Positions 3,190 to 34,961 of a stretch of 36,273 nt of DNA are shown here, one piece after another. The translations under genes were made by a program, and so were the position numbers. The stretch's first letter is position 1. Every line of letters begins with the position of its first letter. The notes below the pieces were generated by a model. It had not been told where the DNA came from, searched no databases, and worked only from the letters and a program-made list of their open reading frames with translations. The stretch spans positions 1-36,273 of IMG/VR virus record IMGVR_UViG_3300017724_000021; one strand, 5' to 3'. Source of the DNA: a virus.

Positions 3190-4206
3190 TTAAGTATTTT
3201 GAGTTAAACGCTTGTCAAGCTTAGAGAATTCGTAATCTACGTTAATTGCGTGGATTTCCGCATGCTTATCCGTTTGTGTGGATATCTCTACGTTAACGTA
3301 AGGGCCTCGTAGCTGATCACCGTCAATTTCTGGTTTTACTGCAAACACAAGCTGGTTGTTGTATAAGACGGTGCCTTCACTAAAAAATATGTTGTTTTGA
3401 AACGGTGCAACTCCAAACGAATTAATTGAAACAATTTTATACGCCAACATCAAAAGCACCTTTCCTTCATATTTTTTATATCCCAAAACATAAAGAGCAA
3501 GAGGGTCAGCGGAATACTGTGAGGACCCTTCTGGTGCAGGCGGCACGTCAAACAGTTCTAGCAATGACCCGTTTTGTACGTTATAAAGACTAACGTTAAA
3601 CGTTTTACTATACGCATAGTCTTCGGGAATAAAACCCTCTTCAGCAATTACGGGGAATAAAGTAAAGCCTTGTAAGTCTTCATAATTACCTTCGTATATT
3701 TCATCTCTAAAATCGCCGCTAATTGTGAAAGCGTCCCCAAAGCCATACTCTTCTGTAAGGCTGGAAACGGTAAATGGCTTGCCAATTATGTTTTCTGTCG
3801 AGTTCAACACGTCCCTTGGCATCTCAGCATACTGAAAACCTTCTTTCTTTTCAAAAGAAGATATACTTCCCTTTTGCTTTTCTTTACCCTCGTACTCTAG
3901 ATTAGTGCAAACCTCTGCCGTCCAGTTCTTTGTGTTTGTCTCTAGCGATAAAGACTTATAAATCTTAACCGCAGAAGGGTCTTGATTAGCAGAAACTGTA
4001 ATAGATGACTTGGCGGCTGGGTTACCGTAGAATTTATTCCTAGTAGATAGCTGATCGTGAAGCCACACGCCTGAACCGTCCTTTGATGACAGCATCTTAT
4101 TCCCAGAAGTCATATAACACGTTGGGTCAAAGCTGTATCGGGAAGTCCAGGTATCGGACCTCGTAGAGAAAGCAAACGTTTTTTCGTTTATGTTTATCTG
4201 CGCCAT
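3190..4206 (-). CDS. Conserved podovirus tail/virion protein
   Basis: The 338-residue protein starts with ATG at 4206, five bases after the nozzle-like gene ends. It reads as a mostly beta, soluble protein without transmembrane segments. The N-terminal half has a stretch with DPSAVKIYKSLSLE and a following Trp/Asn-rich segment that I recall from tail-associated proteins of crAss-like phages; I cannot verify this without a search. It lies between the nozzle-like gene and the internal-virion-type gene and shares their leftward transcript. A tail hub or nozzle-capping role is an inference from order only. Confidence 0.8.
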   Translation of the reverse strand: MAQININEKTFAFSTRSDTWTSRYSFDPTCYMTSGNKMLSSKDGSGVWLHDQLSTRNKFYGNPAAKSSITVSANQDPSAVKIYKSLSLETNTKNWTAEVCTNLEYEGKEKQKGSISSFEKKEGFQYAEMPRDVLNSTENIIGKPFTVSSLTEEYGFGDAFTISGDFRDEIYEGNYEDLQGFTLFPVIAEEGFIPEDYAYSKTFNVSLYNVQNGSLLELFDVPPAPEGSSQYSADPLALYVLGYKKYEGKVLLMLAYKIVSINSFGVAPFQNNIFFSEGTVLYNNQLVFAVKPEIDGDQLRGPYVNVEISTQTDKHAEIHAINVDYEFSKLDKRLTQNT

Positions 4207-24738: not shown

Positions 24739-27183
24739 TTATCCTAATAGTGAGTTTACAATATTATCTACGCTATCCCCAGCCTCTGGAAGTTCACCCC
24801 TGTTTCCTTGACGCTGAGAAAGCAATTTGCTTTGCTCAGAAGACTGCTTCTTTACTCTGTCGTCCTTTCTGTCTTCTTTTAAAACTTCAAGTTTTTGCTT
24901 AAACTCTTGATCTTCAGTCTTAAACCCAAGAGTGGCTTGAGCTTTAATAATCTCGATTTCCTTTCTGAACTGATGTTTCACCTCCTCTAGCTGACCCTCA
25001 AGCTGGGTCTTAAGCTGCATTTGCTGGGCCTCTAGCTGAGCTTCCATTTGCATCTCTTGCATCTTAGCCTGCGAAGCGGCTTGAGCGGCTTGTTGGGCTG
25101 ACTGAGCTTGCATCTGTGAGTTTTGAGCAGCTATTTGTTGCTGTTGGGCCATACGCTTCTTGCGTCTTACCACCAAAAGCCTTTCGGCCTGGTTAACATC
25201 CTTCATGTTCCTAATCGCAATCGCATCTTCGAGGTCTATCTCTTTTTGCTGAATAGCCATCTGAACATTTTGCTCTAAGTATGCCTTGTCTTTGTCTTCC
25301 ATCTCCTTCACCACCTGTACACCAAAGTTGTACATAGGGAGGTCATTGAACGAAGAAAGAACAGCCATATTTTCCTTACCTATGGCGTTGCTGTATATCT
25401 CATGAAGAACAGACTCTTCTGGTATTATTTGCAGACACTTAACTATATCTTCACAAACCTTTTTGTAAAGAATCATAGAAGCGTTAGTGATATCGTATAT
25501 AGCGTTATTGCCTGCGGAAATAGCATTTTGCTGAACCCCTACCAGGGTATCACCCTTAGGTGTAGAAGCGTCCATCATTTCATTGACACCTGTAGCGTCT
25601 CGGATCATACGCAGATAGTGATTGTAAAGACCAATGAGCTCATTGATGTTTCGAATACTATTCCCTATCTCTCTTACTGGTGGGTTCTGAAACCCTCCCT
25701 CTGGGTTTTTACTTCTATAGTAGAATACACCAGTCTGCTCGTAGATATCATGCAAGTCCAAAGGCTGTAAATCTCCGCCTTTACCTAGCTGCACATTCTC
25801 CAATCCCTCGATATCAATGATCAATCCGTCTGGTTTCGCTTTAGCGATAGCTTGCTGGATCTTAAGGTGGGTTAGCTGGAGCATGTCAGCAAAACCAGTA
25901 CAGCTAGACACCATAGACTTCGGCATCATGTCCCGAATATTGGTAGCCACTGGAGAATAAGACAGCCTCACAGATGATATATCGTGGATGTTCTTTGGTA
26001 CGTTCTTAGACCTTCCGTAATTAAATACAATGTTAGATCCGTTCATGACATACATGCCACCGTACACAGTGGCGACATCCATCTTTACTGGATTTCTTTC
26101 AAATACACTGCCTGGTTTCTCAGAGTATTCAAAGCCCTTCATGAAGAAGTTTACGTTACCGAAACGGTTTTCCTTCTCTTCGAAGTATATGCAATCAACA
26201 GAAATAAATTCGAACTCAAGTACATCAACCATGTACTCGTCATATCCATAGTCAGTTCTTTGAGATAGGTTGTTATAACTGCTCTTACCAAAAGAGCTTG
26301 GGTTGTTCCCATACTTCCCCTTAACTGATTTAGCCAACTCCTCAAGCTGCTCTTCTGTAATCTCACCAGCAGATATCCTTCTTAGCTCCTGTATAGAAAT
26401 AGACTTAACATGCCCTGCATAAATTAAATCCTCAAAAAAAGGATCTTCTGTATGGCTGTGAATAAACGTAGAGGGATCTACGTAATCAGTCTTAATGCCG
26501 TGATTAGGGTCGTTACTTCTTTTCACAACGCACATGCCCAGGGCGACGAGATCATTAACACACCTTCGTAGGGTTCCGTCGTTGAAATTGTTCCATGAAA
26601 GGGTCATGTTAGTCCCTATCTGAGCTGCAATCTCTGCGTCAGTTTTGACGTTAGTACCCAAAAGTATTTCAGCCTCCTCTAAAGAGTCTGGGAGCTGATC
26701 TGGATCCTCTCCAATCACCATGCCTGTTTGCTGCTTAAGCTGCTGCAACTGCTTCTTTGCCTCAACCTGGATCTCCATCCTTCTCTTCTTGTTGTTCTTT
26801 TCAGAAGAAGAAAGAGGGTCAATAGCCTCTAGGTTAGGATACGGATCTTTGGACAAAATTTTGTTTACTACAACCCTTACGAATTTAGGTAAAATAGGAA
26901 CAGGGGTGTAGTCCATATTCATCAAGCTTCCGTCACCATCGTTAGGATTAAGGGATCTGAGAAGCTTTTTGTATATGTTGGTGTCTTGAGTGCCGTTAGC
27001 GTAATCTCGGCTTCTTTCGAATACCGCATTTCTTTTACCGTAAAGAGATGTAGACTCCTTTATTTTGCCCCACTGGTTTTCAATAGCCTTTGCATACTGC
27101 AAGCCATAAGACATACTCTCCTTAGTTGATGCGTCTGCCAAAGGGTTTGGGAAGGAATGCTTGCTATTTTTATCGAGGCTCAT
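24739..27183 (-). CDS. Portal protein
   Basis: The 814-residue protein directly follows the terminase gene, as portal genes usually do. It has a helical N-terminus (KRNAVFERSRDYANGTQD), a MDYTPVPILPKFVRVVVNKIL stretch typical of podoviral portals, an aromatic middle, and at residues about 675-785 a very long Gln/Ala/Lys-rich coiled coil (for example QMQAQSAQQAAQAASQAK) that could extend the barrel inside the capsid. The length fits large portals of crAss-like phages. A promoter lies 26 bases upstream. Confidence 0.9.
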   Translation of the reverse strand: MSLDKNSKHSFPNPLADASTKESMSYGLQYAKAIENQWGKIKESTSLYGKRNAVFERSRDYANGTQDTNIYKKLLRSLNPNDGDGSLMNMDYTPVPILPKFVRVVVNKILSKDPYPNLEAIDPLSSSEKNNKKRRMEIQVEAKKQLQQLKQQTGMVIGEDPDQLPDSLEEAEILLGTNVKTDAEIAAQIGTNMTLSWNNFNDGTLRRCVNDLVALGMCVVKRSNDPNHGIKTDYVDPSTFIHSHTEDPFFEDLIYAGHVKSISIQELRRISAGEITEEQLEELAKSVKGKYGNNPSSFGKSSYNNLSQRTDYGYDEYMVDVLEFEFISVDCIYFEEKENRFGNVNFFMKGFEYSEKPGSVFERNPVKMDVATVYGGMYVMNGSNIVFNYGRSKNVPKNIHDISSVRLSYSPVATNIRDMMPKSMVSSCTGFADMLQLTHLKIQQAIAKAKPDGLIIDIEGLENVQLGKGGDLQPLDLHDIYEQTGVFYYRSKNPEGGFQNPPVREIGNSIRNINELIGLYNHYLRMIRDATGVNEMMDASTPKGDTLVGVQQNAISAGNNAIYDITNASMILYKKVCEDIVKCLQIIPEESVLHEIYSNAIGKENMAVLSSFNDLPMYNFGVQVVKEMEDKDKAYLEQNVQMAIQQKEIDLEDAIAIRNMKDVNQAERLLVVRRKKRMAQQQQIAAQNSQMQAQSAQQAAQAASQAKMQEMQMEAQLEAQQMQLKTQLEGQLEEVKHQFRKEIEIIKAQATLGFKTEDQEFKQKLEVLKEDRKDDRVKKQSSEQSKLLSQRQGNRGELPEAGDSVDNIVNSLLG

Positions 27184-27209
27184 AATTTACTTGCATTATG
27201 CATATTCTG

Positions 27210-27217
27210 CAAATATA
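27210..27217 (-). promoter_or_regulatory. -7 promoter element for the portal gene
   Basis: The minus strand reads TATATTTG, exact consensus, with a 26-base gap to the portal ATG. It lies in the only gap between terminase and portal. No well-spaced TTG is visible. Confidence 0.55.
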
Positions 27218-27228
27218 ACAAATCGTCG

Positions 27229-29343
27229 TTAGACCTTATATTTTCTAAAAAACACCTTTTCCTTAAAGTCAGACTTAGGTTTTTCTTTTTCTTTTTGAGC
27301 TGCAAGCAAAGCCAGACCAGAACTAATAGTTAAGTCAAACTTAGTTCTTTTGTCTATTTTAAACCCAATCCAATCCTCAAGGGTTTTGTTAAAGTACATG
27401 GCTCCTGTTTCTCCGCTTTCGTAATTTACACCAACGTGATCGTGAATGTATTTCTCTATAGATTGAGCATGAGACTGTATTACGTCCTGAGAGTTAGACG
27501 GTATGCCTTTTGTCTTTACGTTTACGTGAGAAGAGCTGCTCATAAGGTGTCTCGGTCTATCCATTAAGTAGCCGTCATAACCCCTTGACTCAAAGTACCT
27601 TACAATACCGTACTTATTGTTCTCTACAAGTAAAGGATACCCATAATAAAACGCACACATAAGGACGTCCTCATAGAATATACTGGCTAGGTCTGGCCTA
27701 GAGGCATACTCCACAACAAACATGTTAGAGGGACGGTTCATGCTAAACTTATTGTACATATGAAGAGCCCCTTTAGAACCTCTATTGTCCACAGTGGCAT
27801 CTAGGTCATATGAGTCAACTCCTCCACAGCCATAAGAAGTGAACGGGGCTATTTTTTTTCCTCTTTCAGTTTTAGATATATTTCTTTCAGAAGGATCAGG
27901 CATCCAAGACACCCTAAACCTACCGTTAGGGGTGGGCGAGAAAGCAACCTCTTTGTCTTTTTCCTTCCACGTAAAGTTACCGACAACGACAGGATTAGGG
28001 AACAGCTCGTCATTGTACTCTATTTGCTGATATATCTTACCTATATTAAATAAACTTCCCTCAATACTATCTCTAAACGCTTCATCTTCGGTAAACGGAA
28101 ACTGTCTAGTAACCTCGTTTAGTTCAGACGGGTTATCTTTAAACGACTTGCGTTCATTCTTGAGATAGGTCTTACTGCCAATTTCGATGGTATCTCCATC
28201 TATACCATGTATGTGTACGCTTTGGGGCGGATCCTCAACAACAGCATTGCCATAAACATCAAAGAAACCCTCTAAAGCATCATAGGCTGGGATAAATATT
28301 CTGTAGAGTCCTGTTTTTGTCCTGTCGTTATTGTTTCGCTCATTAGGATCAGAATCATACCACAGCCCCTTGTATTCCTCACCCCCTTTGTTCATGGGGT
28401 TTACCGTACTCCCCACAATGGCTTTACCCACCACCTTGCGCCCCACGATTAAACAAGTACGCTCAATCCTCCAGGCTTCTCTAATGTCAGTTGGTTTTTC
28501 CCACTTACCAGCCTCGTCGAGGTAAAGCATGTGTAGTTTTTCACCGTCATACGCATTGTTCGTGGTGTTCTTCCAGTTAATTACCGTGTTTAAAGCGTCA
28601 CCCCTATGTGAGGTCTTATTGTTTTTAGTGATACGCTTTGACGGCTCACGAAATGCAAGTTCCATGCGTGGGTTGGTGGTACCGTCCTGGATAGGCTTGA
28701 AGAAGAATGGGTAGCTGCGAAAGATCGCAACCACCTTCTTCATGAATATGTTCTCTTGCGAGTCTTTACCAGTTTTCGATTGTATGCCAAGAAGCTTCTC
28801 TTTAACTTGACTAGCTTCATCCACAAGGACAGCAGAGCATATGTTAGTGTAGCCAGAACGACGACACTTAGTATAAAGCTGACCGAAACAACGAGGGTCA
28901 GCTTCACAAGCAGCCATGTGCGTAAAGATGTCTTTTTGGAAAGCGAGGTATGATGGATATCCGATATCAATTTTAGACCATTGTAGAAACATATAGTGTC
29001 TCCCTGTAATATACGTAGGCTCCCCATTATTGTAAAACCATACACCGTCGCGCCTACGCTGAAACTCTTGCTCGATGTAAGAACGAAACTTGTTACGAAA
29101 CTCGGCAGGTTTTTCGAGCCACTCATCCATACTGCGTATCCTGCGCATTTCCTCTGGCATAGGTGTGCGCTTCCACAACTGCAACTTCTTTGGCTGGTCA
29201 TGGAAGAGAATTTGCGATTTGCGCGGTTTCTTTGGCAGGACCACGAGTAACCCGTGGAGCTCGACAACTTGTCCTTCTGTACCGTTAGGGTCGATCTTAA
29301 TCCCTTTAGTTTCATACCCCTTTATGTCGATTATAGTGGACAT
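27229..29343 (-). CDS. terL: Terminase large subunit
   Basis: The 704-residue DNA-packaging motor resembles crAss-type terminases: RNKFRSYIEQEFQRRRDGVW, then YNNGEPTYITGRHYMFLQWS. An atypical Walker A (TKCRRSGYTN) is at about residues 158-167, Walker B (MLYLDEAG) at about 272-279 and a coupling motif (GSTVNP) after it. The nuclease half includes a YGCGGVDSYDLDAT acidic site and a VVEYASRPD motif. I choose the ATG at 29343, which overlaps the preceding stop (TGATG), not the TTG three bases upstream. It cuts and translocates DNA through the portal encoded next. Confidence 0.93.
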   Translation of the reverse strand: MSTIIDIKGYETKGIKIDPNGTEGQVVELHGLLVVLPKKPRKSQILFHDQPKKLQLWKRTPMPEEMRRIRSMDEWLEKPAEFRNKFRSYIEQEFQRRRDGVWFYNNGEPTYITGRHYMFLQWSKIDIGYPSYLAFQKDIFTHMAACEADPRCFGQLYTKCRRSGYTNICSAVLVDEASQVKEKLLGIQSKTGKDSQENIFMKKVVAIFRSYPFFFKPIQDGTTNPRMELAFREPSKRITKNNKTSHRGDALNTVINWKNTTNNAYDGEKLHMLYLDEAGKWEKPTDIREAWRIERTCLIVGRKVVGKAIVGSTVNPMNKGGEEYKGLWYDSDPNERNNNDRTKTGLYRIFIPAYDALEGFFDVYGNAVVEDPPQSVHIHGIDGDTIEIGSKTYLKNERKSFKDNPSELNEVTRQFPFTEDEAFRDSIEGSLFNIGKIYQQIEYNDELFPNPVVVGNFTWKEKDKEVAFSPTPNGRFRVSWMPDPSERNISKTERGKKIAPFTSYGCGGVDSYDLDATVDNRGSKGALHMYNKFSMNRPSNMFVVEYASRPDLASIFYEDVLMCAFYYGYPLLVENNKYGIVRYFESRGYDGYLMDRPRHLMSSSSHVNVKTKGIPSNSQDVIQSHAQSIEKYIHDHVGVNYESGETGAMYFNKTLEDWIGFKIDKRTKFDLTISSGLALLAAQKEKEKPKSDFKEKVFFRKYKV

Positions 29344-29531
29344 CAAAAGCTCTGTCCGTGTGAGTTCATTCTACCCAGCAAAGGTACACCATCTTTAGGG
29401 TTTTTAATCTCCATTTGTTCGCCACACTCACACTGGCCTTCAGGGTAGTAAACACTACCTTCTTTGAACTTCATGGTAAGGCTTCTTACAGATTTCTCTG
29501 CTTTACATTTTCTGCAAATTAGATCGGGCAT
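29343..29531 (-). CDS. Small zinc-ribbon protein
   Basis: The 62-residue protein has a C-x2-C pair at residues 6 and 9 and a C-x-C pair at 34 and 36 (CRKCK; CECGEQ), a likely zinc-binding ribbon. Its stop overlaps the terminase start. It may be a packaging accessory or DNA/RNA-binding factor; position next to the terminase is the only hint. Confidence 0.75.
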   Translation of the reverse strand: MPDLICRKCKAEKSVRSLTMKFKEGSVYYPEGQCECGEQMEIKNPKDGVPLLGRMNSHGQSF

Positions 29532-29549
29532 ATTGTTTAATTTAATTCG

Positions 29550-29623
29550 TACACCAGACAGGATTCGAACCTGTGACCGTCTGCTTAGAAGGCAGATGCT
29601 CTATCCAACTGAGCTACTGGTGC
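29550..29623 (-). tRNA. tRNA-Arg (TCT)
   Basis: The 74-base sequence folds as a full cloverleaf: acceptor GCACCAG/CTGGTGT (first pair G-T), D arm with GAGC, anticodon loop CTTCTAA and a TTCGAAT T-loop. The anticodon TCT reads AGA and AGG. No CCA is encoded. It lies three bases after the other tRNA. Confidence 0.95.
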
Positions 29624-29626
29624 ATG

Positions 29627-29700
29627 TGCTCCCTCCAGGACTTGAACCTGGGACCTGCCGATTATGAGTCGGATGCTCTAACCGACTGAGCTAAGAGAGC
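29627..29700 (-). tRNA. tRNA with CAT anticodon, probably Ile2
   Basis: The 74-base cloverleaf has acceptor GCTCTCT/AGGGAGC, D arm GCTC/GAGC, anticodon loop CTCATAA and T-loop TTCAAGT; CCA is not encoded. The CAT anticodon fits elongator Met or Ile2, in which lysidine lets it read ATA. The TTCAAGT loop and the CGACTCATAATCG core resemble E. coli ileX rather than the elongator Met tRNAs. The first anticodon-stem pair is mismatched. Confidence 0.93.
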
Positions 29701-29743
29701 TTAAAGTTTACCTTTAGGTTACAGGCTGTATTGTTTTGATTAT

Positions 29744-29771
29744 CAAAGTTATAGTCGTCCCAGTAGATCAA
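29744..29771 (-). promoter_or_regulatory. Promoter for the tRNA pair
   Basis: The minus strand has TTG at 29771-29769, a 17-base spacer and TAACTTTG at 29751-29744, about 43 bases before the first tRNA. It overlaps the end of the preceding gene. It is a good match to the Bacteroidetes promoter and may also serve the zinc-ribbon and terminase genes. Confidence 0.65.
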
Positions 29772-29781
29772 TCCACTAGCG

Positions 29782-30072
29782 TTATTTTGAGAACCTTTCT
29801 GCAAAACCCCCTGAGTAGTCTTTTTCGTTTTCGATTTCTCCATTGTTCTTGAGTTCTTTAACCATTTGTTCTAGCCTCTGGCGCTCCACCAAAAGCTCTT
29901 TACAGTCAATGGCCGTTTGCTTTATGGATTGGAGCTCGGCCTTACGCGCTGACCCTCCCGCTTCGGGATCAACAGGCTTCTTGACTTCCTCAATCATATT
30001 ATTAATGGCAATCTCCATACTATCCATTAGCCTTTGGGCGGCGCTAACAGTGGTAAACTTAGACTTCGACAT
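29782..30072 (-). CDS. Helical protein, possible small terminase subunit
   Basis: An upstream ATG would extend the frame deep into the GroES-like gene, so I prefer the ATG at 30072 (14-base overlap), giving 96 residues from MSKSKFTTVSA. The sequence is helical throughout (AAQRLMDSMEIAINNMIEEVK; ELLVERQRLEQMVKELKN) and ends with DYSGGFAERFSK. Its position before the terminase, with only tRNAs and a zinc ribbon between, suits a small terminase subunit, but no helix-turn-helix is clear. The coding call is firm, the function weak. Confidence 0.75.
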   Translation of the reverse strand: MSKSKFTTVSAAQRLMDSMEIAINNMIEEVKKPVDPEAGGSARKAELQSIKQTAIDCKELLVERQRLEQMVKELKNNGEIENEKDYSGGFAERFSK

Positions 30073-30643
30073 ATAACAAGTCTTCTGTACGGGTTCTGTA
30101 GTATTCCTTACCATCGATGGTAATTCTGTAATCACGGTTTTCTTTAAACCCAACTACATCACCTACTTCTAGCCCCGCTTCTTTAATACCAGAAGACGAA
30201 AACGCGACCCTACCTCTTGTTGGTAGCTTCTCGCTAAGTTTGACAACCTCGATAAGCTTCGATTCTTGAACTTCTTCCTCTTCGATAGCCTCAAGAAGAC
30301 TCCAACCCGCAAGAGGGTGGACATCACCAGTACTACTATCTTTAAAAGCAATAGCTTGATTATTGATAGCATGATCTTCATCATATCTGACAAGGTAGTG
30401 ATTGTCATCACCAGTAAGTGGCTGGCCTTCATTGATAACCACGAGGTGATGGAAGTAAAGCGTGTCGCCAGGCTTGACCCCAGTCTCGTACTTAAACGGA
30501 ACAGCCACGACAGGGCCTTCTGTAATTCTGTTTTCAAATTCATTAAATCTATTGTCTACGTATAATTCTAATCCACCACTCGTTGTAATGGTGTCGTCTA
30601 TAGTCTTTTCTAACTCGACTACGAATAAGTTAAAAGTCTTCAT
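30059..30643 (-). CDS. Double-length GroES-like co-chaperonin
   Basis: The 194-residue protein is about twice the length of bacterial GroES and reads as two GroES folds in tandem. Half one (1 to about 115): NLFVVELEK, a mobile-loop-like TTSGGLELYVD, EGPVVAVP and the hallmark VKPGDTLYFHH. Half two (about 113-194): SLLEAIEEEE, TRGRVAFSS, LEVGDVVGFKENRDY and a RTEDLLYVEV end, with a much shorter loop. The GD-x-x-x-F signature occurs at residues 59-64 and 161-166. It probably replaces the host GroES lid when GroEL folds phage proteins such as the capsid. Confidence 0.8.
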   Translation of the reverse strand: MKTFNLFVVELEKTIDDTITTSGGLELYVDNRFNEFENRITEGPVVAVPFKYETGVKPGDTLYFHHLVVINEGQPLTGDDNHYLVRYDEDHAINNQAIAFKDSSTGDVHPLAGWSLLEAIEEEEVQESKLIEVVKLSEKLPTRGRVAFSSSGIKEAGLEVGDVVGFKENRDYRITIDGKEYYRTRTEDLLYVEV

Positions 30644-30646
30644 TCA

Positions 30647-30883
30647 TTAAAAATTTAAATCAAATTCAAGTACACAGGGCATCTCATCTACTGCCTTCCA
30701 CAGCATAGTACCTTCATCATTTTCAATGTATATAAGATATCGCTGTTTTCCAAACTTATGGAGCTGTCTTTCGTCTTCAACAATAGCTGAGACCTCTCCA
30801 GATCCTGCTCTCATACCTACGTAATAGGCCATGCCATTTTTAGGGTCTCTTCCGACCACAATTTTTCTAATAAGTCCTTCCAT
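30647..30883 (-). CDS. Small conserved-type protein of unknown function
   Basis: The 78-residue protein starts MEGLIRKIVVGRDPKNGMAY and ends in CVLEFDLNF. It is a mixed alpha/beta fold without obvious motifs. It follows the next upstream gene by one base and precedes the GroES-like gene by three, so it belongs to the same operon. I have a faint memory of such proteins next to phage GroES genes but cannot confirm it. Confidence 0.7.
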   Translation of the reverse strand: MEGLIRKIVVGRDPKNGMAYYVGMRAGSGEVSAIVEDERQLHKFGKQRYLIYIENDEGTMLWKAVDEMPCVLEFDLNF

Positions 30884-30884
30884 T

Positions 30885-31181
30885 TTAGTTTAGGGATATG
30901 CCCAATTCACCAAGGAGGTCATCCAGTGAGTCGTCTTCCTGATAGGCGCTGTCCATAACTTGCTTTACCGTTTCTAGTTCCTCCCTGCTTTCTAGGTTAA
31001 AGCTGTACATTGTTTTCATTTCTGCGCTCTCATCACCAACCTCTACAGCGTCGAGGTCTATAACCCCGATAACTATAGTTGCTAAGGTGCGATCTTTCAT
31101 TTCGAACTCATCAATCGTCTCCTCCATCTTTTTGACGAGGGAGTACATTTCGGCAAAGAAGAGGGTGTCTTTCGGGTTCAT
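30885..31181 (-). CDS. Small acidic protein, first gene of co-chaperonin operon
   Basis: The 98-residue acidic protein starts MNPKDTLFFAEMYS and has a helical YSLVKKMEETIDEFEM segment and an Asp/Glu-rich tail. It is the first gene after a well-spaced promoter and faces the plus-strand gene at 31218. No family is recognised. Confidence 0.7.
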   Translation of the reverse strand: MNPKDTLFFAEMYSLVKKMEETIDEFEMKDRTLATIVIGVIDLDAVEVGDESAEMKTMYSFNLESREELETVKQVMDSAYQEDDSLDDLLGELGISLN

Positions 31182-31185
31182 GATG

Positions 31186-31193
31186 TAAATTTG
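31186..31193 (+). promoter_or_regulatory. -7 element for the winged-helix-like gene
   Basis: The plus strand reads TAAATTTG, an exact TAnnTTTG match, 24 bases before the ATG at 31218. It lies next to the opposing leftward box at 31201-31208, so the two promoters face each other. No -33 TTG is visible. Confidence 0.5.
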
Positions 31194-31200
31194 TTTAAGT

Positions 31201-31232
31201 CAAATATACGAATTAATATGCCTAGGTCTCAA
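31201..31232 (-). promoter_or_regulatory. Promoter for the co-chaperonin operon
   Basis: The minus strand has TTG at 31232-31230, a 21-base spacer and TATATTTG at 31208-31201, 19 bases before the ATG at 31181. It lies partly within the start of the opposing gene, so transcription of one could affect the other. Confidence 0.7.
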
Positions 31233-31634
31233 GTTAAGAAAACAAGGATGTTCAGGGACTTTTCAAAAATGCCCTCTAGGTTCGTAAAGAACAACCATTT
31301 AAAAAATCTCAAGAGTGCTACAGAAGAGTTTGTTGACGGCAGCGAGATTACGAAGAGCTACCTGTACTTTATGCTGTTTGTTTACGAATTGGAATTCTTT
31401 ACTATATCGTGGGTGGCAAGTGAGTACGGCATGAACAAAAAGAACCTAGCTGACAGGATGATATACCCTTTAATGTCTTTAGGCTACCTATACAAGCACT
31501 TCGATAAGTTAACCCCCTCTCAAACCCTGGAGGATCACTTGTTTAGAGATGAAACTAAATTCAACTACCGAGTAAGATATGCGCTATCGCAGAAAGGCAG
31601 AATGGCAGTACAGCGTTTCTACAACTCACTTTAA
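31218..31634 (+). CDS. Winged-helix-like DNA-binding protein
   Basis: A TTG at 31191 would give a longer reading, but the ATG at 31218 is preferred because it is downstream of a TAnnTTTG box; the product is 138 residues. It has a basic N-terminus (PRSQVKKTRMFRDF), helices with YLYFMLFVYELEFFTISWVA, and SEYGMNKKNLADRMIYPLMS, which reads as a recognition-helix region. A possible wing (NYRVRYALSQKGRMAVQRF) is typical of winged-helix proteins. It is one of two plus-strand genes here and faces an operon promoter, so it may be a phage regulator. Confidence 0.75.
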   Translation: MPRSQVKKTRMFRDFSKMPSRFVKNNHLKNLKSATEEFVDGSEITKSYLYFMLFVYELEFFTISWVASEYGMNKKNLADRMIYPLMSLGYLYKHFDKLTPSQTLEDHLFRDETKFNYRVRYALSQKGRMAVQRFYNSL

Positions 31635-31658
31635 GCGTTTTCTAACTTAAGGTTTTTT
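31629..31658 (+). terminator. Possible terminator after the winged-helix-like gene
   Basis: A 7-bp stem CTTTAAG/CTTAAGG (one T-G pair) with a 10-base loop is followed by TTTTTT. It overlaps the stop codon region of the gene and the end of the converging minus-strand gene. Confidence 0.5.
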
Positions 31659-32167
31659 ATGTAAAACTCGGCACCTGCATTTGGGCGATCATTAGTTGGA
31701 TTGTTCCAATAAATATATAAATCAACAAAAGTATTATTAGTAGTAGCGGCAAGTGTTTGATCAAACAAAGTAGCTTGACCTGACGTTATGTCTTGATTTG
31801 CTTGGTTTCCTCCTAAAGCTACGGATGTTGTTGTTGGACCGTTAGGCCAATGAGCCTTGTTTTCGGAATTTGTTCCGTCGCTCAAGAATAAATCAAAGGA
31901 TATCTTGTAGCTTGAGCCAACCGTGATTCCTCCGATCGTCCCAGCAAAGTTAGACGCTAATATGCCTACGTAGCTGGTTTGTTCTGTGGCGAAAACTCCC
32001 TTAAGCCATCCAGTACTTCCGTCTGGAGCCGATTGATTGGCCGTGAAGGACAAAGTTCCTTGAACAGAATCCCCAGTAAAAAAGTCATCAGCAATGGGAG
32101 TAGCTTCAACGGATCCACCCTGCGCCACAAAAACTGATCTATCTATAGATGTTCCTAGTCCTAACAT
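31631..32167 (-). CDS. Virion-like beta-sandwich protein
   Basis: The open frame reaches an ATG at 32215, but the ATG at 32167 is preferred: it lies exactly four bases after a TATCTTTG box, as for five other genes here. The 178-residue product begins MLGLGTSIDRSVFV and continues as Gly/Thr/Asn-rich strands ending in FVDLYIYWNNP and EFYIKNLKLENA, as in carbohydrate-binding or LamG-type modules of phage surface proteins. It overlaps nothing essential and may be an exposed decoration protein. Confidence 0.75.
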   Translation of the reverse strand: MLGLGTSIDRSVFVAQGGSVEATPIADDFFTGDSVQGTLSFTANQSAPDGSTGWLKGVFATEQTSYVGILASNFAGTIGGITVGSSYKISFDLFLSDGTNSENKAHWPNGPTTTSVALGGNQANQDITSGQATLFDQTLAATTNNTFVDLYIYWNNPTNDRPNAGAEFYIKNLKLENA

Positions 32168-32171
32168 AAAA

Positions 32172-32179
32172 CAAAGATA
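32172..32179 (-). promoter_or_regulatory. -7 promoter element four bases before ATG
   Basis: The minus strand reads TATCTTTG, then TTTT and the ATG at 32167. It lies at the stop-codon end of the endolysin gene (stop near 32181). It decides the start of the downstream gene. Confidence 0.6.
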
Positions 32180-32180
32180 A

Positions 32181-32645
32181 CTAAATGACTTTATAGTAAG
32201 TCCGACCCTTTTCATCTCTTAAGGCTCGCTTGATCTGCTTTCTGTTTTTCCCACCTTCTTTAAATGACACATGAACCCAAGCGGGGTCCTCGTCATCCCC
32301 GAATTCCCAGATCATCTGATCCCATTCCAGGTTCTTTTTTATGAAGTCAAATATCTCTGAGTTAGTAACCCTCCCATACATATCGGCGTCTATATCAATA
32401 GCCTCTCCAATCATATGCTGAGAGTATTTGCTCCCACCTATCGCCTTATTTAACTCCTTCGATCTAAATCCAGAGCTGATCCCAATAGGTACACCGAAGT
32501 GATCACGCACTGGTTGAAAAATGTGGTCCGCTACAGCCTGGAGGTTATGTATAGTCCACTTATCTGGGGTGTTGTCTATCCCCTTTCGGGTCGCGGTGTT
32601 GGATTTCACCACCTCCTTTAACATAAGGTTTTTGCTTAATTTCAT
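32181..32645 (-). CDS. M15-type D-Ala-D-Ala carboxypeptidase-like endolysin
   Basis: The 154-residue protein matches the M15A peptidase family: GVPIGISSGFRSKELNKAIGG is followed by SQHMIGEAIDID (zinc ligands His77 and Asp84) and WVHVSF (His125). Glu114 in IWEF may be the catalytic acid. These enzymes cut peptidoglycan stem peptides or cross-links; here it would release progeny. No signal peptide is present, so export would need a holin, and I see none. Confidence 0.9.
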   Translation of the reverse strand: MKLSKNLMLKEVVKSNTATRKGIDNTPDKWTIHNLQAVADHIFQPVRDHFGVPIGISSGFRSKELNKAIGGSKYSQHMIGEAIDIDADMYGRVTNSEIFDFIKKNLEWDQMIWEFGDDEDPAWVHVSFKEGGKNRKQIKRALRDEKGRTYYKVI

Positions 32646-32726
32646 TTTTCTGAGCCACCCAAGAAGGGTTGATTCTTTTGATTCGAGGGTTGTGATAATA
32701 TTTCTTCAATCTATGATTGAATATAG

Positions 32727-32734
32727 CAAAGTTA
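32727..32734 (-). promoter_or_regulatory. -7 element upstream of the endolysin
   Basis: The minus strand reads TAACTTTG about 80 bases before the ATG at 32645. It is the best leftward match in the gap between the endolysin and the plus-strand gene. No -33 TTG is seen. Confidence 0.4.
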
Positions 32735-32744
32735 GAAAAAAAAT

Positions 32745-32775
32745 TTGTGAGATCGAAAAGTTTGTCTTACCTTGA
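32745..32775 (+). promoter_or_regulatory. Candidate promoter for the exported-protein gene
   Basis: A TTG at 32745-32747, a 20-base spacer and TACCTTGA at 32768-32775 resemble the Bacteroidetes promoter with two changes in the -7 element. It is 45 bases before the ATG at 32821. Confidence 0.35.
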
Positions 32776-32820
32776 GATCAGCGAAACCAAAAATACAATA
32801 AACCAATTAATTCAATCGCC

Positions 32821-33243
32821 ATGAAAAACTTCCTCTTAATCCTTTGCCTGTTCTTTGCAGGTGTTGCTTTTAGCCAAGACTCATTCGTTCTTGAGCAACC
32901 TTTCTACTCTAAATCTAAAGTAGATTCTATCCTAGTGTTCCAAGTAAATACAAACGGCCCTGTAGCCAATAAAGCTTTCTTACGGGGTAGTGACCGCGAC
33001 AGATTTGTTCGTACATGTCAACATAAGCGAAACCTTAATCAAATTAGTTCGTACAGCGGACGATCTGCTATCCATACCTTCAACGAGTTCGGATACTACG
33101 CTGTAGTTTGCTTCGAAGACGGAAAACGCAGTGGAGCTACTTTCTTTTGCGTAGATAAGAAATTCCTACGTATCAAGCGCAATACAAATCTCTCCGCCCC
33201 AGAACGTGTGGGCGATATCGAAGATAAGTACGTAATAGGTTAA
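32821..33243 (+). CDS. Small exported protein of unknown function
   Basis: The 140-residue protein has a textbook signal peptide: MKN, a hydrophobic core FLLILCLFFAGVAFS and a likely cleavage before QDS at about residue 19. There is no Cys at the site, so it is not a lipoprotein. The mature part is basic and has three Cys (TCQHK, VVCFED, FFCVDK) and a motif GYYAVVCFEDGKRSGATFF. It is on the plus strand, with its own candidate promoter and strong terminator, between the endolysin and small basic genes, as expected for an independently expressed cargo gene. It may alter the host envelope, for example to block superinfection; this is inference. Confidence 0.8.
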   Translation: MKNFLLILCLFFAGVAFSQDSFVLEQPFYSKSKVDSILVFQVNTNGPVANKAFLRGSDRDRFVRTCQHKRNLNQISSYSGRSAIHTFNEFGYYAVVCFEDGKRSGATFFCVDKKFLRIKRNTNLSAPERVGDIEDKYVIG

Positions 33244-33264
33244 GACAACCTGTAGGTAAAAGAA

Positions 33265-33287
33265 AAGGGGCGCAAGCCCCTTTTTTT
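33265..33287 (+). terminator. Intrinsic terminator, possibly bidirectional
   Basis: A 7-bp stem AAGGGGC/GCCCCTT with a GCAA loop is followed by T residues on the plus strand; the minus strand also shows a T-rich side (CCCCTTTTC). It overlaps the end of the leftward gene whose TAA is at 33286-33288, so it may end both transcripts. Confidence 0.8.
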
Positions 33288-33795
33288 ATCCTCTTCTTTT
33301 TTTGCCTTTGATTGGCTTTACTGTTCGGTTTCGATCACGGCCTTGCTTTGCTAGCTCTTTGTTGTACCGATCAACAGTTCTGTCAGCTCTTCTAATTTGC
33401 CCTTTTGTAGCATCTGGTGAAGCCTCCCCGCTTACTATTTTCCTTGAAGCGCTTCCTGCTGCTTGAGGAGTGTTTAAAAAGCGCCTTCCAGTCTTCCTAA
33501 CGCGGTCTAACGCGCGATCCTCTAGCCTAGCTTTTTTAATAGGATTATATACCTCGCTTCTTTTATCAGAACTTTCTGCATTTCGCGTTGAATGTGTTAC
33601 AAATCTTCCGCCAGATTCGTCGGCTTGCATACCTGCGGTATCTATACCTTTTCGTTCAGCTCTTTTCTTAAGGCGGCGTTTCTTTTTTGTCGCTGCGGTT
33701 GCCTTGACTAGATCAAGCTTTCCTCCTTTTGCATACTTCTTTACCATGTCGTAAAGAGCTGCCTTTCCTCCTTTGTTGTATTTTTTAGTCTTCAT
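33286..33795 (-). CDS. Very basic KYNKGGK-motif protein
   Basis: The 169-residue protein starts MKTKKYNKGGKAA and repeats the motif as KKYAKGGKLD near residue 21. A Lys/Arg-rich block (TKKKRRLKKRAERKG) and a basic C-terminus (KPIKGKKRRG) follow. It resembles the other small basic proteins here. It may bind DNA or RNA or be packaged in the virion; no fold is recognised. Confidence 0.7.
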   Translation of the reverse strand: MKTKKYNKGGKAALYDMVKKYAKGGKLDLVKATAATKKKRRLKKRAERKGIDTAGMQADESGGRFVTHSTRNAESSDKRSEVYNPIKKARLEDRALDRVRKTGRRFLNTPQAAGSASRKIVSGEASPDATKGQIRRADRTVDRYNKELAKQGRDRNRTVKPIKGKKRRG

Positions 33796-33799
33796 AATA

Positions 33800-34270
33800 T
33801 TAGCTTGCTATAAATATTTCTACTTGAACTTCATTTGAAGCGGGATCTACTAAAATACTTTCTAAATCTGTCATTGTTGTGTTGATGTTTTTTGTGTCGT
33901 CGTCAACAGCTATACCATCATGAACTTTTCCAGTTATAAAGCTTTTACCAGCCTCCAGCACTAAAGTACAGGACGAATCTGCAACTCCATTTTCATTTGT
34001 AGAGACCTGTAAGGAAAGATTGACTTCATTGGAAGCATCAAGATTAGTGACTCGAATATACTTGACATCATCAATATTCATAGTGGGCTTTCCTGCAACT
34101 GTATGAGTGGTTGCCTGAAACGCAGCAATCGTAGTGTCCTGGCTAGCGGGACAAGTTACAATTCTGTTGAATGATTGAGTTACGCTTGCTATAGAAGTGA
34201 TGTTCTCGCTACCACGGTTTGATCCGTTTAGCGTGAGCTCTTCTTTAATCGTTACAGTGAGTACAGCCAT
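33800..34270 (-). CDS. Decoration-like structural protein
   Basis: The 156-residue protein has a strand-rich layout with VKYIRVTNLDASNEVNLSLQV then CTLVLEAGKSFI, close in pattern to the tandem decoration-like proteins at 18189-19018. Its ATG overlaps the preceding stop as TAATG. It is probably a virion surface protein, although it lies among small basic genes. Confidence 0.7.
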   Translation of the reverse strand: MAVLTVTIKEELTLNGSNRGSENITSIASVTQSFNRIVTCPASQDTTIAAFQATTHTVAGKPTMNIDDVKYIRVTNLDASNEVNLSLQVSTNENGVADSSCTLVLEAGKSFITGKVHDGIAVDDDTKNINTTMTDLESILVDPASNEVQVEIFIAS

Positions 34271-34719
34271 TACTTACGGTTTCTTCTTTTTCCTCGTCTA
34301 ACCTCTTTCTTAGAAGGTACAGGGATAACAGCTTTAGACTTCTTTAAAGTCTTCTTAGGCGTTTTTGTTGTAATCTTCTTAGGAGATATAGGGGTTGCCT
34401 TTGCCCCGCCTCTTAATGGAGACCCGTCTTTGTTTCTTAAGTTTTGATCGTCAAGAGGTTTAGGCATCTTGAAGTCTGGCCGCTGCTCAGCTCTTCTAGC
34501 ATTAGAGGCATTGTTCCTAGCATTACTGCTTCGTCTTGCAGCCGCTTCCTTGAGCTTCTGTTCGTAGGTCTTTTCTGGCTTTTGCATGGGGTAGCTGCGG
34601 TAGCGTGCCTTGGCATTCTCTAAAACCTGTTCTTTCGTTCTCTCTAAAGTATCAGACTGAGCAGTGCGCTTATTGCCTTTTACTTTACCTCCTTTATTGT
34701 ATGCTTTCTTAGCTTTCAT
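34270..34719 (-). CDS. Very basic KAYNKGGK-motif protein
   Basis: The 149-residue protein begins MKAKKAYNKGGKVKGNK, with long Lys/Arg/Ala-rich helical segments (EQKLKEAAARRSSNARNNAS) and a C-terminus rich in Lys and Arg (KKEVRRGKRRNRK). It has a TAnnTTTG box four bases before the ATG. Function unknown; probable nucleic-acid binder by charge. Confidence 0.7.
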   Translation of the reverse strand: MKAKKAYNKGGKVKGNKRTAQSDTLERTKEQVLENAKARYRSYPMQKPEKTYEQKLKEAAARRSSNARNNASNARRAEQRPDFKMPKPLDDQNLRNKDGSPLRGGAKATPISPKKITTKTPKKTLKKSKAVIPVPSKKEVRRGKRRNRK

Positions 34720-34733: not shown

Positions 34734-34961
34734 TTATTTCTTTTTCTTGAGTCGGGACTTCTCTCGCCGCCCACGATTCGTGCTCTCTGCCTCAAACCCT
34801 ACGATCTTACCACCCTTATGAGATGCATCAAGGCTGTCCCCATTCCCATAGGTTCCTTTCTCTCGGTTGTACTTGTTTAGCTCAGCCCGTTTCTTCTTTG
34901 CTCTGCCGCCAGAACCAAACTTCTTGTACTCCTCTTTGTAGTTACGCTTCTTAACTCTCAT
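34734..34961 (-). CDS. Small basic protein with conserved KRAELNKYNREKGTYGNGD core
   Basis: The 75-residue protein has KKRAELNKYNREKGTYGNGD followed by SLDASHKGGKIVGFEAESTN and a basic end (RGRREKSRLKKKK). I recall this block from many short proteins of marine phages. The D-x-x-H...N spacing loosely recalls a His-Me finger (HNH) nuclease core, but key residues are too few to claim activity. The ATG overlaps the preceding stop as ATGA. Confidence 0.75.
   Translation of the reverse strand: MRVKKRNYKEEYKKFGSGGRAKKKRAELNKYNREKGTYGNGDSLDASHKGGKIVGFEAESTNRGRREKSRLKKKK

What the first reader, a model, noticed from the sequence alone, without database searches (positions are those of the whole stretch)
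32821..33243. Isolated plus-strand gene for an exported protein
A signal-peptide protein with three Cys has its own promoter candidate and strong terminator and opposes the surrounding transcription. This is typical of an autonomous cargo gene. Exported phage proteins often alter the envelope or block superinfection.
Basis: partly seen in the sequence, partly recalled or inferred. Interest (0 to 1): 0.5.

Follow-up and report, generated by a model that had tools for sequence, protein, structure and literature searches.

The report
Swappable phage gene for exported proteins
Marine phages of this group keep one special promoter beside their cell-lysis enzyme gene and drive from it an exchangeable gene whose protein is probably sent out of the cytoplasm, so that near-identical phages carry quite different exported proteins, perhaps to keep rival phages out.

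Summary
In detail: window 32821-33243 (+) encodes a 140-aa protein with a type I signal peptide (cleavage inferred before Gln19), on the strand opposite to its neighbours. It is more than an isolated gene. Relatives found through the terminase show an optional, interchangeable cassette divergent from the lytic-enzyme gene: of 28 with readable sequence there, 16 carry one and 12 have nothing. All 16 follow the same promoter-like block, TTTG-N20/21-TANNNTGAGATCAGC, whose TANNN-10-mer part occurs exactly once in each of 10 cassette records of 51-72 kb. In 66 distinct cassettes, 62 complete cargo genes fall into 12 sequence clusters (two of them linkable) plus short membrane-anchored peptides. A relative whose terminase differs in 1 of 705 residues has an unrelated cargo between 97-98% identical DNA. 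Cargo genes of relatives are under purifying selection. The target is modelled as a generic Ig-like beta-sandwich. Best guess: an exported accessory protein acting in the host envelope, superinfection exclusion above all. It is probably not the holin: a conserved holin candidate lies elsewhere in 14 of 14 records over 44 kb. Function is untested.

The parts
32744..32747 (+). TTTG, -33-type promoter element
   Evidence: Spacer to TA is 20 nt in 48 and 21 nt in 18 of 66 distinct cassettes; host consensus TTTG/TAHHTTTG in PMC6847099 (passages). All 66 were selected by the pattern, so its letters cannot be counted as conserved in them; the loci free of that circle are the 19 among L004-L083, found by terminase.
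32768..32782 (+). TACCTTGAGATCAGC: imperfect -7 element plus TGAGATCAGC
   Evidence: TGAGATCAGC invariant in the 15 sequences (window's phage and 14 relatives) aligned before any pattern search; 19 occurrences in 903,993 bases of L004-L083 against 2.1 expected, 17 followed by a cargo ORF and 2 cut by the contig end; exactly once in 10 of 10 cassette records.
32780..32820 (+). inferred 5' leader (about 41 nt)
   Evidence: Start inferred from the -12/-11 register of the -7 element (PMC6847099); sequence.
32821..32874 (+). signal peptide, residues 1-18
   Evidence: Sequence; Q19 invariant in the 16-row family alignment.
32875..33243 (+). mature cargo domain, residues 19-140, and stop
   Evidence: AlphaFold2 model pLDDT 80, Ig-like matches only; 16-row alignment.
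33263..33284 (.). bidirectional terminator-like hairpin between convergent genes
32792..33710 (.). exchanged module: leader, cargo, terminator and most of the convergent basic-protein gene
   Evidence: No blastn match here against L322, L156, L004 or L184, while 32206-32791 and 33711 onward match; homology to L319 and L010 also ends at 32791 and resumes at 33713 and 33734.
32181..32645 (-). divergent M15 peptidase (endolysin)
   Evidence: Pfam Peptidase_M15_3 E 1.6e-19; PHROG endolysin E 3.1e-38.
33286..33795 (-). convergent basic protein with N-terminal KKYNKGGK, 3' part exchanged together with the cargo
   Evidence: no Pfam match and one weak PHROG match, E 0.021.

Best explanation
The gene is one allele of an optional, interchangeable cargo cassette of a group of marine Bacteroidetes-type phages. 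Shown: a conserved promoter-like block, divergent from the cell-wall hydrolase gene, is followed by a cargo gene that mostly keeps its 5' leader and signal peptide, while the mature part is replaced by unrelated sequence between near-identical phages. Inferred: host RNA polymerase transcribes it from the TTTG/TANN promoter, perhaps with a phage factor that reads TGAGATCAGC; the Sec system exports it; signal peptidase I cleaves before Gln19; the Ig-like domain then works in the periplasm or at the outer membrane. Exchange probably goes by homologous recombination between the conserved promoter block and the conserved 5' end of the convergent gene. Most likely job (inferred): to change the envelope of the infected cell to the phage's advantage, superinfection exclusion above all, the diversity reflecting different rival phages or receptors.
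For: Site and optionality: 16 of 28 readable relatives have an exported or membrane-anchored ORF with the motif at this site, 12 of 28 neither. Six of six F1 relatives found by protein search alone lie on contigs that the motif scan also found. Turnover: on a TerL tree of 58 rows with 15 states at least 32 changes of cargo state (200 label shuffles: mean 40.7, minimum 34). Close pair: L322 has 704 of 705 TerL residues identical, flanking DNA 98.1%, 97.4% and 97.5% identical, and an F2 cargo instead of F1. Real proteins: dN/dS 0.01-0.46, mostly near 0.1, in the 32 of 44 pairs where dS could be estimated. Single site: the motif once per record in 10 of 10 cassette records. Not tied to the lytic enzyme: M15 peptidases 89-92% identical to the window's sit beside F1, F2, F3, F5 or S1 cargo, and F1, F2 and S2 also occur beside other enzyme types. 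Both models are all-beta or mainly beta with Ig/FN3-class matches, a class common in binding proteins. Precedents for small exported exclusion proteins: T5 Llp (PMC9586334, passages), T4 Spackle (PMC7677548, start of abstract).
Against: No functional annotation of the target in Pfam, PHROGs or PADLOC (best a Cas11 match at E 0.012, taken as chance) and no solved relative (best E 0.024). No lipobox, unlike Llp. The cassette sits beside a lysis enzyme, not beside a proven receptor-binding gene, and in other lineages again beside a cell-wall hydrolase or DUF5675 protein, which could point to lysis. A more distant annotated phage (MW202828) has the M15 gene without a divergent neighbour. Purifying selection within families shows constraint, not an arms race within a family. 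Cargo state follows the terminase tree somewhat better than chance (32 changes against at least 34 in shuffles), so turnover is not unlimited. Expression time is unknown.
Confidence: 0.5

Rival explanations
1. Lysis modulator: a periplasmic antiholin or lysis-timing protein, like T4 RI, encoded beside the endolysin.
For: In every locus where the divergent neighbour was identified it is a cell-wall hydrolase or DUF5675 protein: M15, amidase, DUF5675, SLT. T4 RI is a periplasmic antiholin with a cleavable signal peptide (PMC8385771, title and start of abstract).
Against: Absent from 12 of 28 relatives. A holin candidate, 59-87% identical to the query in the 13 other records that have it, is present in 14 of 14 records over 44 kb, with or without the cassette, while the cargo differs completely, so cargo and candidate do not co-vary. 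Cargo family is also independent of the enzyme type. The candidate is named by hydropathy only, and in the one homologue checked the second segment is weak (1.48).
Confidence: 0.17
2. Host-takeover or anti-defence effector: the exported protein disables a variable host envelope defence or another envelope function.
For: Hypervariable, optional, exported by anatomy. The weak CarboxypepD_reg match of cargo F7 (L095, E 2.1e-4) would fit mimicry of a TonB-dependent transporter domain.
Against: No convincing match to defence-system models among the ten proteins scanned, though that library is not one of anti-defence genes. The F7 match is below Pfam's cutoff (22.0 against 32.3 bits).
Confidence: 0.2
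3. Virion protein or spanin-like lysis component that merely has an N-terminal hydrophobic stretch.
For: The short S1/S2 peptides (55-68 aa) keep one N-terminal hydrophobic segment, as an inner-membrane spanin subunit would.
Against: The cleavage site with Gln19 is invariant in the F1 alignment; orientation opposite to the structural genes; optional.
Confidence: 0.07

Closest known systems
Variable exported genes of the Bacteroidetes 'Cryophage' (Bellas et al. 2020, PMC7468147; section 8 and passages read)
   Same: Near-identical core genomes with exchangeable genes for exported proteins; the authors too suggest superinfection exclusion or inter-strain competition.
   Different: Those three carry T9SS sorting domains (endoglucanase, glycoside hydrolase, PA14 protein). 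Here a single site marked by a promoter-like block, small proteins with type I signal peptides, about a dozen sequence clusters, next to the lysis enzyme.
T5 Llp / Cor superinfection-exclusion lipoproteins (PMC9586334, passages)
   Same: Works like: small exported phage protein acting in the envelope (inferred here).
   Different: No lipobox; beta-sandwich model; gene next to the endolysin, whereas llp is adjacent to and downstream of the receptor-binding gene.
T4 Spackle (PMC7677548, start of abstract)
   Same: Periplasmic protein of a phage, if the signal peptide works as inferred.
   Different: Target and expression time of the present protein unknown; no comparison with Spackle itself was made.
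T4 antiholin RI (PMC8385771, title and start of abstract)
   Same: Periplasmic, cleavable signal peptide, linked to lysis.
   Different: Here exchangeable against unrelated proteins while the holin candidate is conserved.

Membership tests
Phage moron / accessory cargo cassette | Present in some and absent from other close relatives at the same site | tested here: met
   16 present, 12 absent of 28
Phage moron / accessory cargo cassette | Own promoter | tested here: inconclusive
   Conserved promoter-like block ahead of the gene; activity not measured; one F1 cargo in record G001 lacks the motif
Phage moron / accessory cargo cassette | Own terminator | tested here: met
   Window 33263-33284; 39 of 57 cassettes; the scored F3 (5) and F4 (5) cassettes and 8 others lack one
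Phage moron / accessory cargo cassette | Benefit independent of the core life cycle | not testable with these tools
   needs experiment
Llp/Cor superinfection-exclusion lipoproteins | Lipobox with Cys at +1 | tested here: not met
   Gln19 after the signal peptide, invariant in 16 rows
Llp/Cor superinfection-exclusion lipoproteins | Inactivates the phage receptor | not testable with these tools
   needs experiment
Cryophage-type T9SS cargo | C-terminal T9SS sorting domain | tested here: not met
   No T9SS domain in the Pfam scan of the target at E up to 1
T4 RI-type antiholin | Cleavable signal peptide and periplasmic domain | tested here: inconclusive
   fits by sequence anatomy only
T4 RI-type antiholin | Binds the phage's holin | not testable with these tools
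   indirect evidence against: holin candidate conserved while cargo is swapped
Holin | Retained membrane helix or helices forming the lesion | tested here: inconclusive
   single N-terminal hydrophobic segment with a cleavage-like site; another candidate exists in related records
Ig-like fold proteins | Beta-sandwich fold | tested here: inconclusive
   model pLDDT 80, best Z 6.9 to pilin SpaB 7cbs, rmsd 4.3 over 111 residues; no Foldseek match at E 0.001 or better

The most novel reading that the evidence does not exclude
A phage lineage has a dedicated, once-per-genome expression site with its own promoter code (TTTG-N20-TANNNTGAGATCAGC), into which unrelated signal-peptide cargo genes are swapped by recombination. 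Each cargo would define an exclusion type, so that near-identical phages with different cargo exclude different rivals: a modular, envelope-level immunity-type system of marine Bacteroidetes phages.
Probability: 0.3. Interest if true: 0.75.

Novelty: new variant of a known kind. Interest (0 to 1): 0.57.

Why it matters
It turns an anonymous ORF into a defined, searchable cassette with a promoter-like signature, about a dozen exported protein clusters and natural pairs of near-identical phages that differ in cargo. That makes the question of what small exported phage proteins do in marine Bacteroidetes directly testable by swapping cargo in an isogenic background.

Tried and rejected
Searches for homologues by the target alone gave only near-identical copies in viral contigs and none in annotated phages or genomes; plasmids gave one 39% stretch at E 1, taken as chance. 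A profile search of viral contigs with A1 could not run, no stretch being conserved enough; a single family member was used instead (6 loci, all on contigs that the motif scan lists too).

Promoter pattern in genome contigs: 119 stretches in all, about 80 listed, spread over many phyla. I took them as chance from the record titles and did not examine them one by one. In viral contigs 51 of 137 pattern rows had no TerL, M15 or plus-strand-gene match and were dropped as chance before counting; some of those rows also have an ORF behind the motif.

A recombination-site role for TGAGATCAGC was considered: a site-specific exchange would need a second copy, and the window has only one exact copy. 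Cargo as holin: disfavoured. Cargo co-adapted to the endolysin: disfavoured. A co-varying neighbour (31631-32215): not supported, since L156 matches the window through that gene but has another cargo, and L006 and L322 lack it. Profile comparison between the 12 clusters gave no confident link; F1-F12 and F4-F5 have E 0.005 and 0.002 but low probability. A later cargo from record G001 matches both F1 (L078, E 2e-25) and F12 (L326, E 1e-8), so F12 is probably a branch of F1. Fold searches gave only generic Ig/FN3 matches.

A finding against universality of the promoter: record G001 (71.5 kb, the contig of L046) holds two terminases and a second lysis locus, where an F1 cargo lies divergent from an SLT-domain enzyme without the TGAGATCAGC motif.

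Papers: apart from PMC7468147, the listings showed no report of this cassette; only listings and abstract starts were seen except where stated, and only open-licence papers are held.

Full report
Observation. The ORF 32821-33243 is real in sequence and position: 140 aa, ATG to TAA, on the plus strand between minus-strand genes. Its first 18 residues look like a type I signal peptide followed by Gln, which is usual for exported Bacteroidetes proteins (my knowledge). Its GC content (0.42) equals that of the window (0.43). The phage is related to phages of Flavobacterium and Cellulophaga: terminase PHROG match, best listed annotated terminase 45% identical (MW202828), a crAss-like muzzle C-terminal domain at 3190-4206. 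The window is an IMG/VR virus record of 36.3 kb, while related records of 50-62 kb exist, so it is probably a fragment.

Relatives. By itself the protein finds only the same phage in two other contigs (DNA 99.98% identical). With the terminase, 80 related loci were fetched (L004-L083, the best 80 of a capped list). In 30 of them the M15 endolysin could be read from its start. Two contigs end within 250 nt (L012, L037; both have the motif). Of the other 28, 16 have an ORF with signal peptide or membrane anchor on the opposite strand, as a rule about 175 nt from the endolysin start, and 12 have instead a co-oriented neighbour 65-76 nt away (L071 also lists a short ORF at 33 nt) and no such ORF. 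The list holds near-duplicates (for example L021/L022, L046/L047, L027/L054). The more distant annotated phage MW202828 also has no divergent gene there.

Promoter. The 15 divergent regions aligned before any motif search (the window's phage and 14 relatives) share TGAGATCAGC without exception, also L078, whose endolysin is only 53% identical. In L004-L083 (903,993 bases) the 10-mer occurs 19 times against 2.1 expected, once per locus and at this site; 17 are followed by a cargo ORF and 2 are cut by the contig end. With TTTG and TA 20 or 21 nt apart the block resembles the Bacteroidetes promoter TTTG/TAHHTTTG (PMC6847099, passages), but the -7 element differs (TANNNTGA), so the conserved GAGATCAGC is extra information, perhaps for a phage or alternative factor (inference). 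In whole records TANNNTGAGATCAGC occurs exactly once in 10 of 10 cassette-bearing records of 50.9-71.5 kb (seven of these were chosen because they have it, so the result is the single copy) and not at all in two records without cassette; the reversed control pattern gave 0 in 12.

Cargo diversity. Of 137 pattern rows from the viral loci then held, 86 belonged to this phage group by TerL, M15 or plus-strand-gene match; 80 of the 86 have an ORF starting within 150 nt and 6 are cut by the contig end. After adding the stretches and merging duplicates there are 66 distinct cassettes, 62 with complete ORFs. Of these, 51 long cargos form 12 clusters by phmmer at E 1e-3 (the target's cluster F1 has 18, of which 2 are the window's own phage), and 11 are short membrane-anchored peptides. 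F12 links to F1 through a further sequence, and F4 and F5 may be related. Among 44 pairs of similar cargos, dN/dS is 0.01-0.46 in the 32 where dS could be estimated, so these are translated, constrained proteins; the window's own allele has no pair close enough.

Exchange. L322 shares 704 of 705 terminase residues with the window. Its DNA is 98.1% identical over 26554-31632, 97.4% over 32206-32791 and 97.5% over 33711-34153, but 32792-33710 is unrelated, and the gene at 31633-32205 is missing. The left break at 32791 recurs against L319, L156, L004, L184 and L010; in L006, whose cargo is 37% identical to the target, homology runs on to 32877. On a quick terminase tree of 58 rows (17 of 54 inner branches weakly supported) cargo state changes at least 32 times; shuffled labels give 34-45: only modest agreement with phylogeny. 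Presence or absence changes 8 times.

Neighbouring enzyme. Where no M15 gene is found, the divergent neighbour is a DUF5675 protein (L190, L133, L136, L141, L143, L177, L198) or a peptidoglycan-binding amidase (L049). One representative of each was scanned against Pfam (the amidase domain itself just misses its cutoff), the other DUF5675 neighbours were judged by eye. A second lysis locus in the 71.5-kb record pairs an F1 cargo with an SLT enzyme. This persistent link with the lysis locus is the best argument for a lysis role. Against it stand the optional nature, the lack of matching between cargo and enzyme, and a conserved holin candidate present in 14 of 14 records over 44 kb and in 0 of 7 shorter ones. 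That candidate has two hydrophobic segments in the query; in the homologue of G001 the second is weak, and my ORF caller had missed that homologue. Among the window's called genes the target is the only one with a hydrophobic segment.

Structure. The 16-row family alignment gave a model with pLDDT 80: mostly strands with helices at 51-68 and 113-122. No Foldseek match reaches E 0.001; the best VIA Z is 6.9, which that tool calls middling. Family F2 (8 rows, pLDDT 70) is all-beta; its matches are FN3-like, for example Z 6.2, rmsd 3.2 over 77 residues to a monobody. Ig-like folds suggest a binding module, not which partner.

Mechanism. Shown: site, conservation of the promoter-like block, exchange, constraint on relatives. 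Inferred: transcription by host polymerase, Sec export, cleavage, envelope action, superinfection exclusion. T5 Llp shows that a small phage lipoprotein can jam a TonB-dependent transporter (PMC9586334, passages); the weak CarboxypepD_reg similarity of cargo F7 (below cutoff) makes an analogous target conceivable here. I give exclusion or related envelope modification 0.5 overall.

Novelty. Variable exported genes in a Bacteroidetes phage were described for Cryophage (PMC7468147, section 8), so the principle is known. I saw no description of a single-site cassette of many small cargo families beside the lysis enzyme in the listings. Hence new variant of a known kind.

Noticed in passing
window 31633-32205: A second variable island on the other side of the endolysin, covering the minus-strand ORF 31631-32215; in DUF5675-type relatives (L190, L136) a longer protein that looks LamG/lectin-like by eye sits there. 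It is missing in L006 and L322 and shared with L156, so it does not move with the cargo.
   Followed up: partly
window 31191-31634 (+): Second conserved plus-strand gene, present in relatives with and without the cassette; weak winged-helix hint in one relative (below cutoff). A possible regulator.
   Followed up: partly
window 33286-33795, 34270-34719, 34734-34961 (-): Basic minus-strand proteins with similar N-termini (KKYNKGGK, KKAYNKGGK, KKRNYKEEYKKFGSGG); several proteins of relatives start alike, suggesting a shared targeting or cleavage tag.
   Followed up: no
L340-L343 (record G001, contig IMGVR_UViG_3300025120_000034) and L344-L347 (record G004): G001 has two terminases (85% and 72% identical to the window's) and two lysis loci; G004 has a full and a partial terminase. 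Perhaps assembly chimeras of two phages. The second locus of G001 has an F1 cargo beside an SLT enzyme without the promoter motif.
   Followed up: partly
L345:17014-17442 and 13 other records: Conserved ORF of about 140 aa with one strong and one weaker hydrophobic segment, 59-87% identical to the query: candidate holin that is not beside the endolysin, no Pfam match.
   Followed up: partly
window 29559-29616: A 58-bp stretch near the terminase that gives an extra alignment of its own at 78-79% identity in several relatives, besides the long one that covers it, hinting at a short repeat.
   Followed up: no
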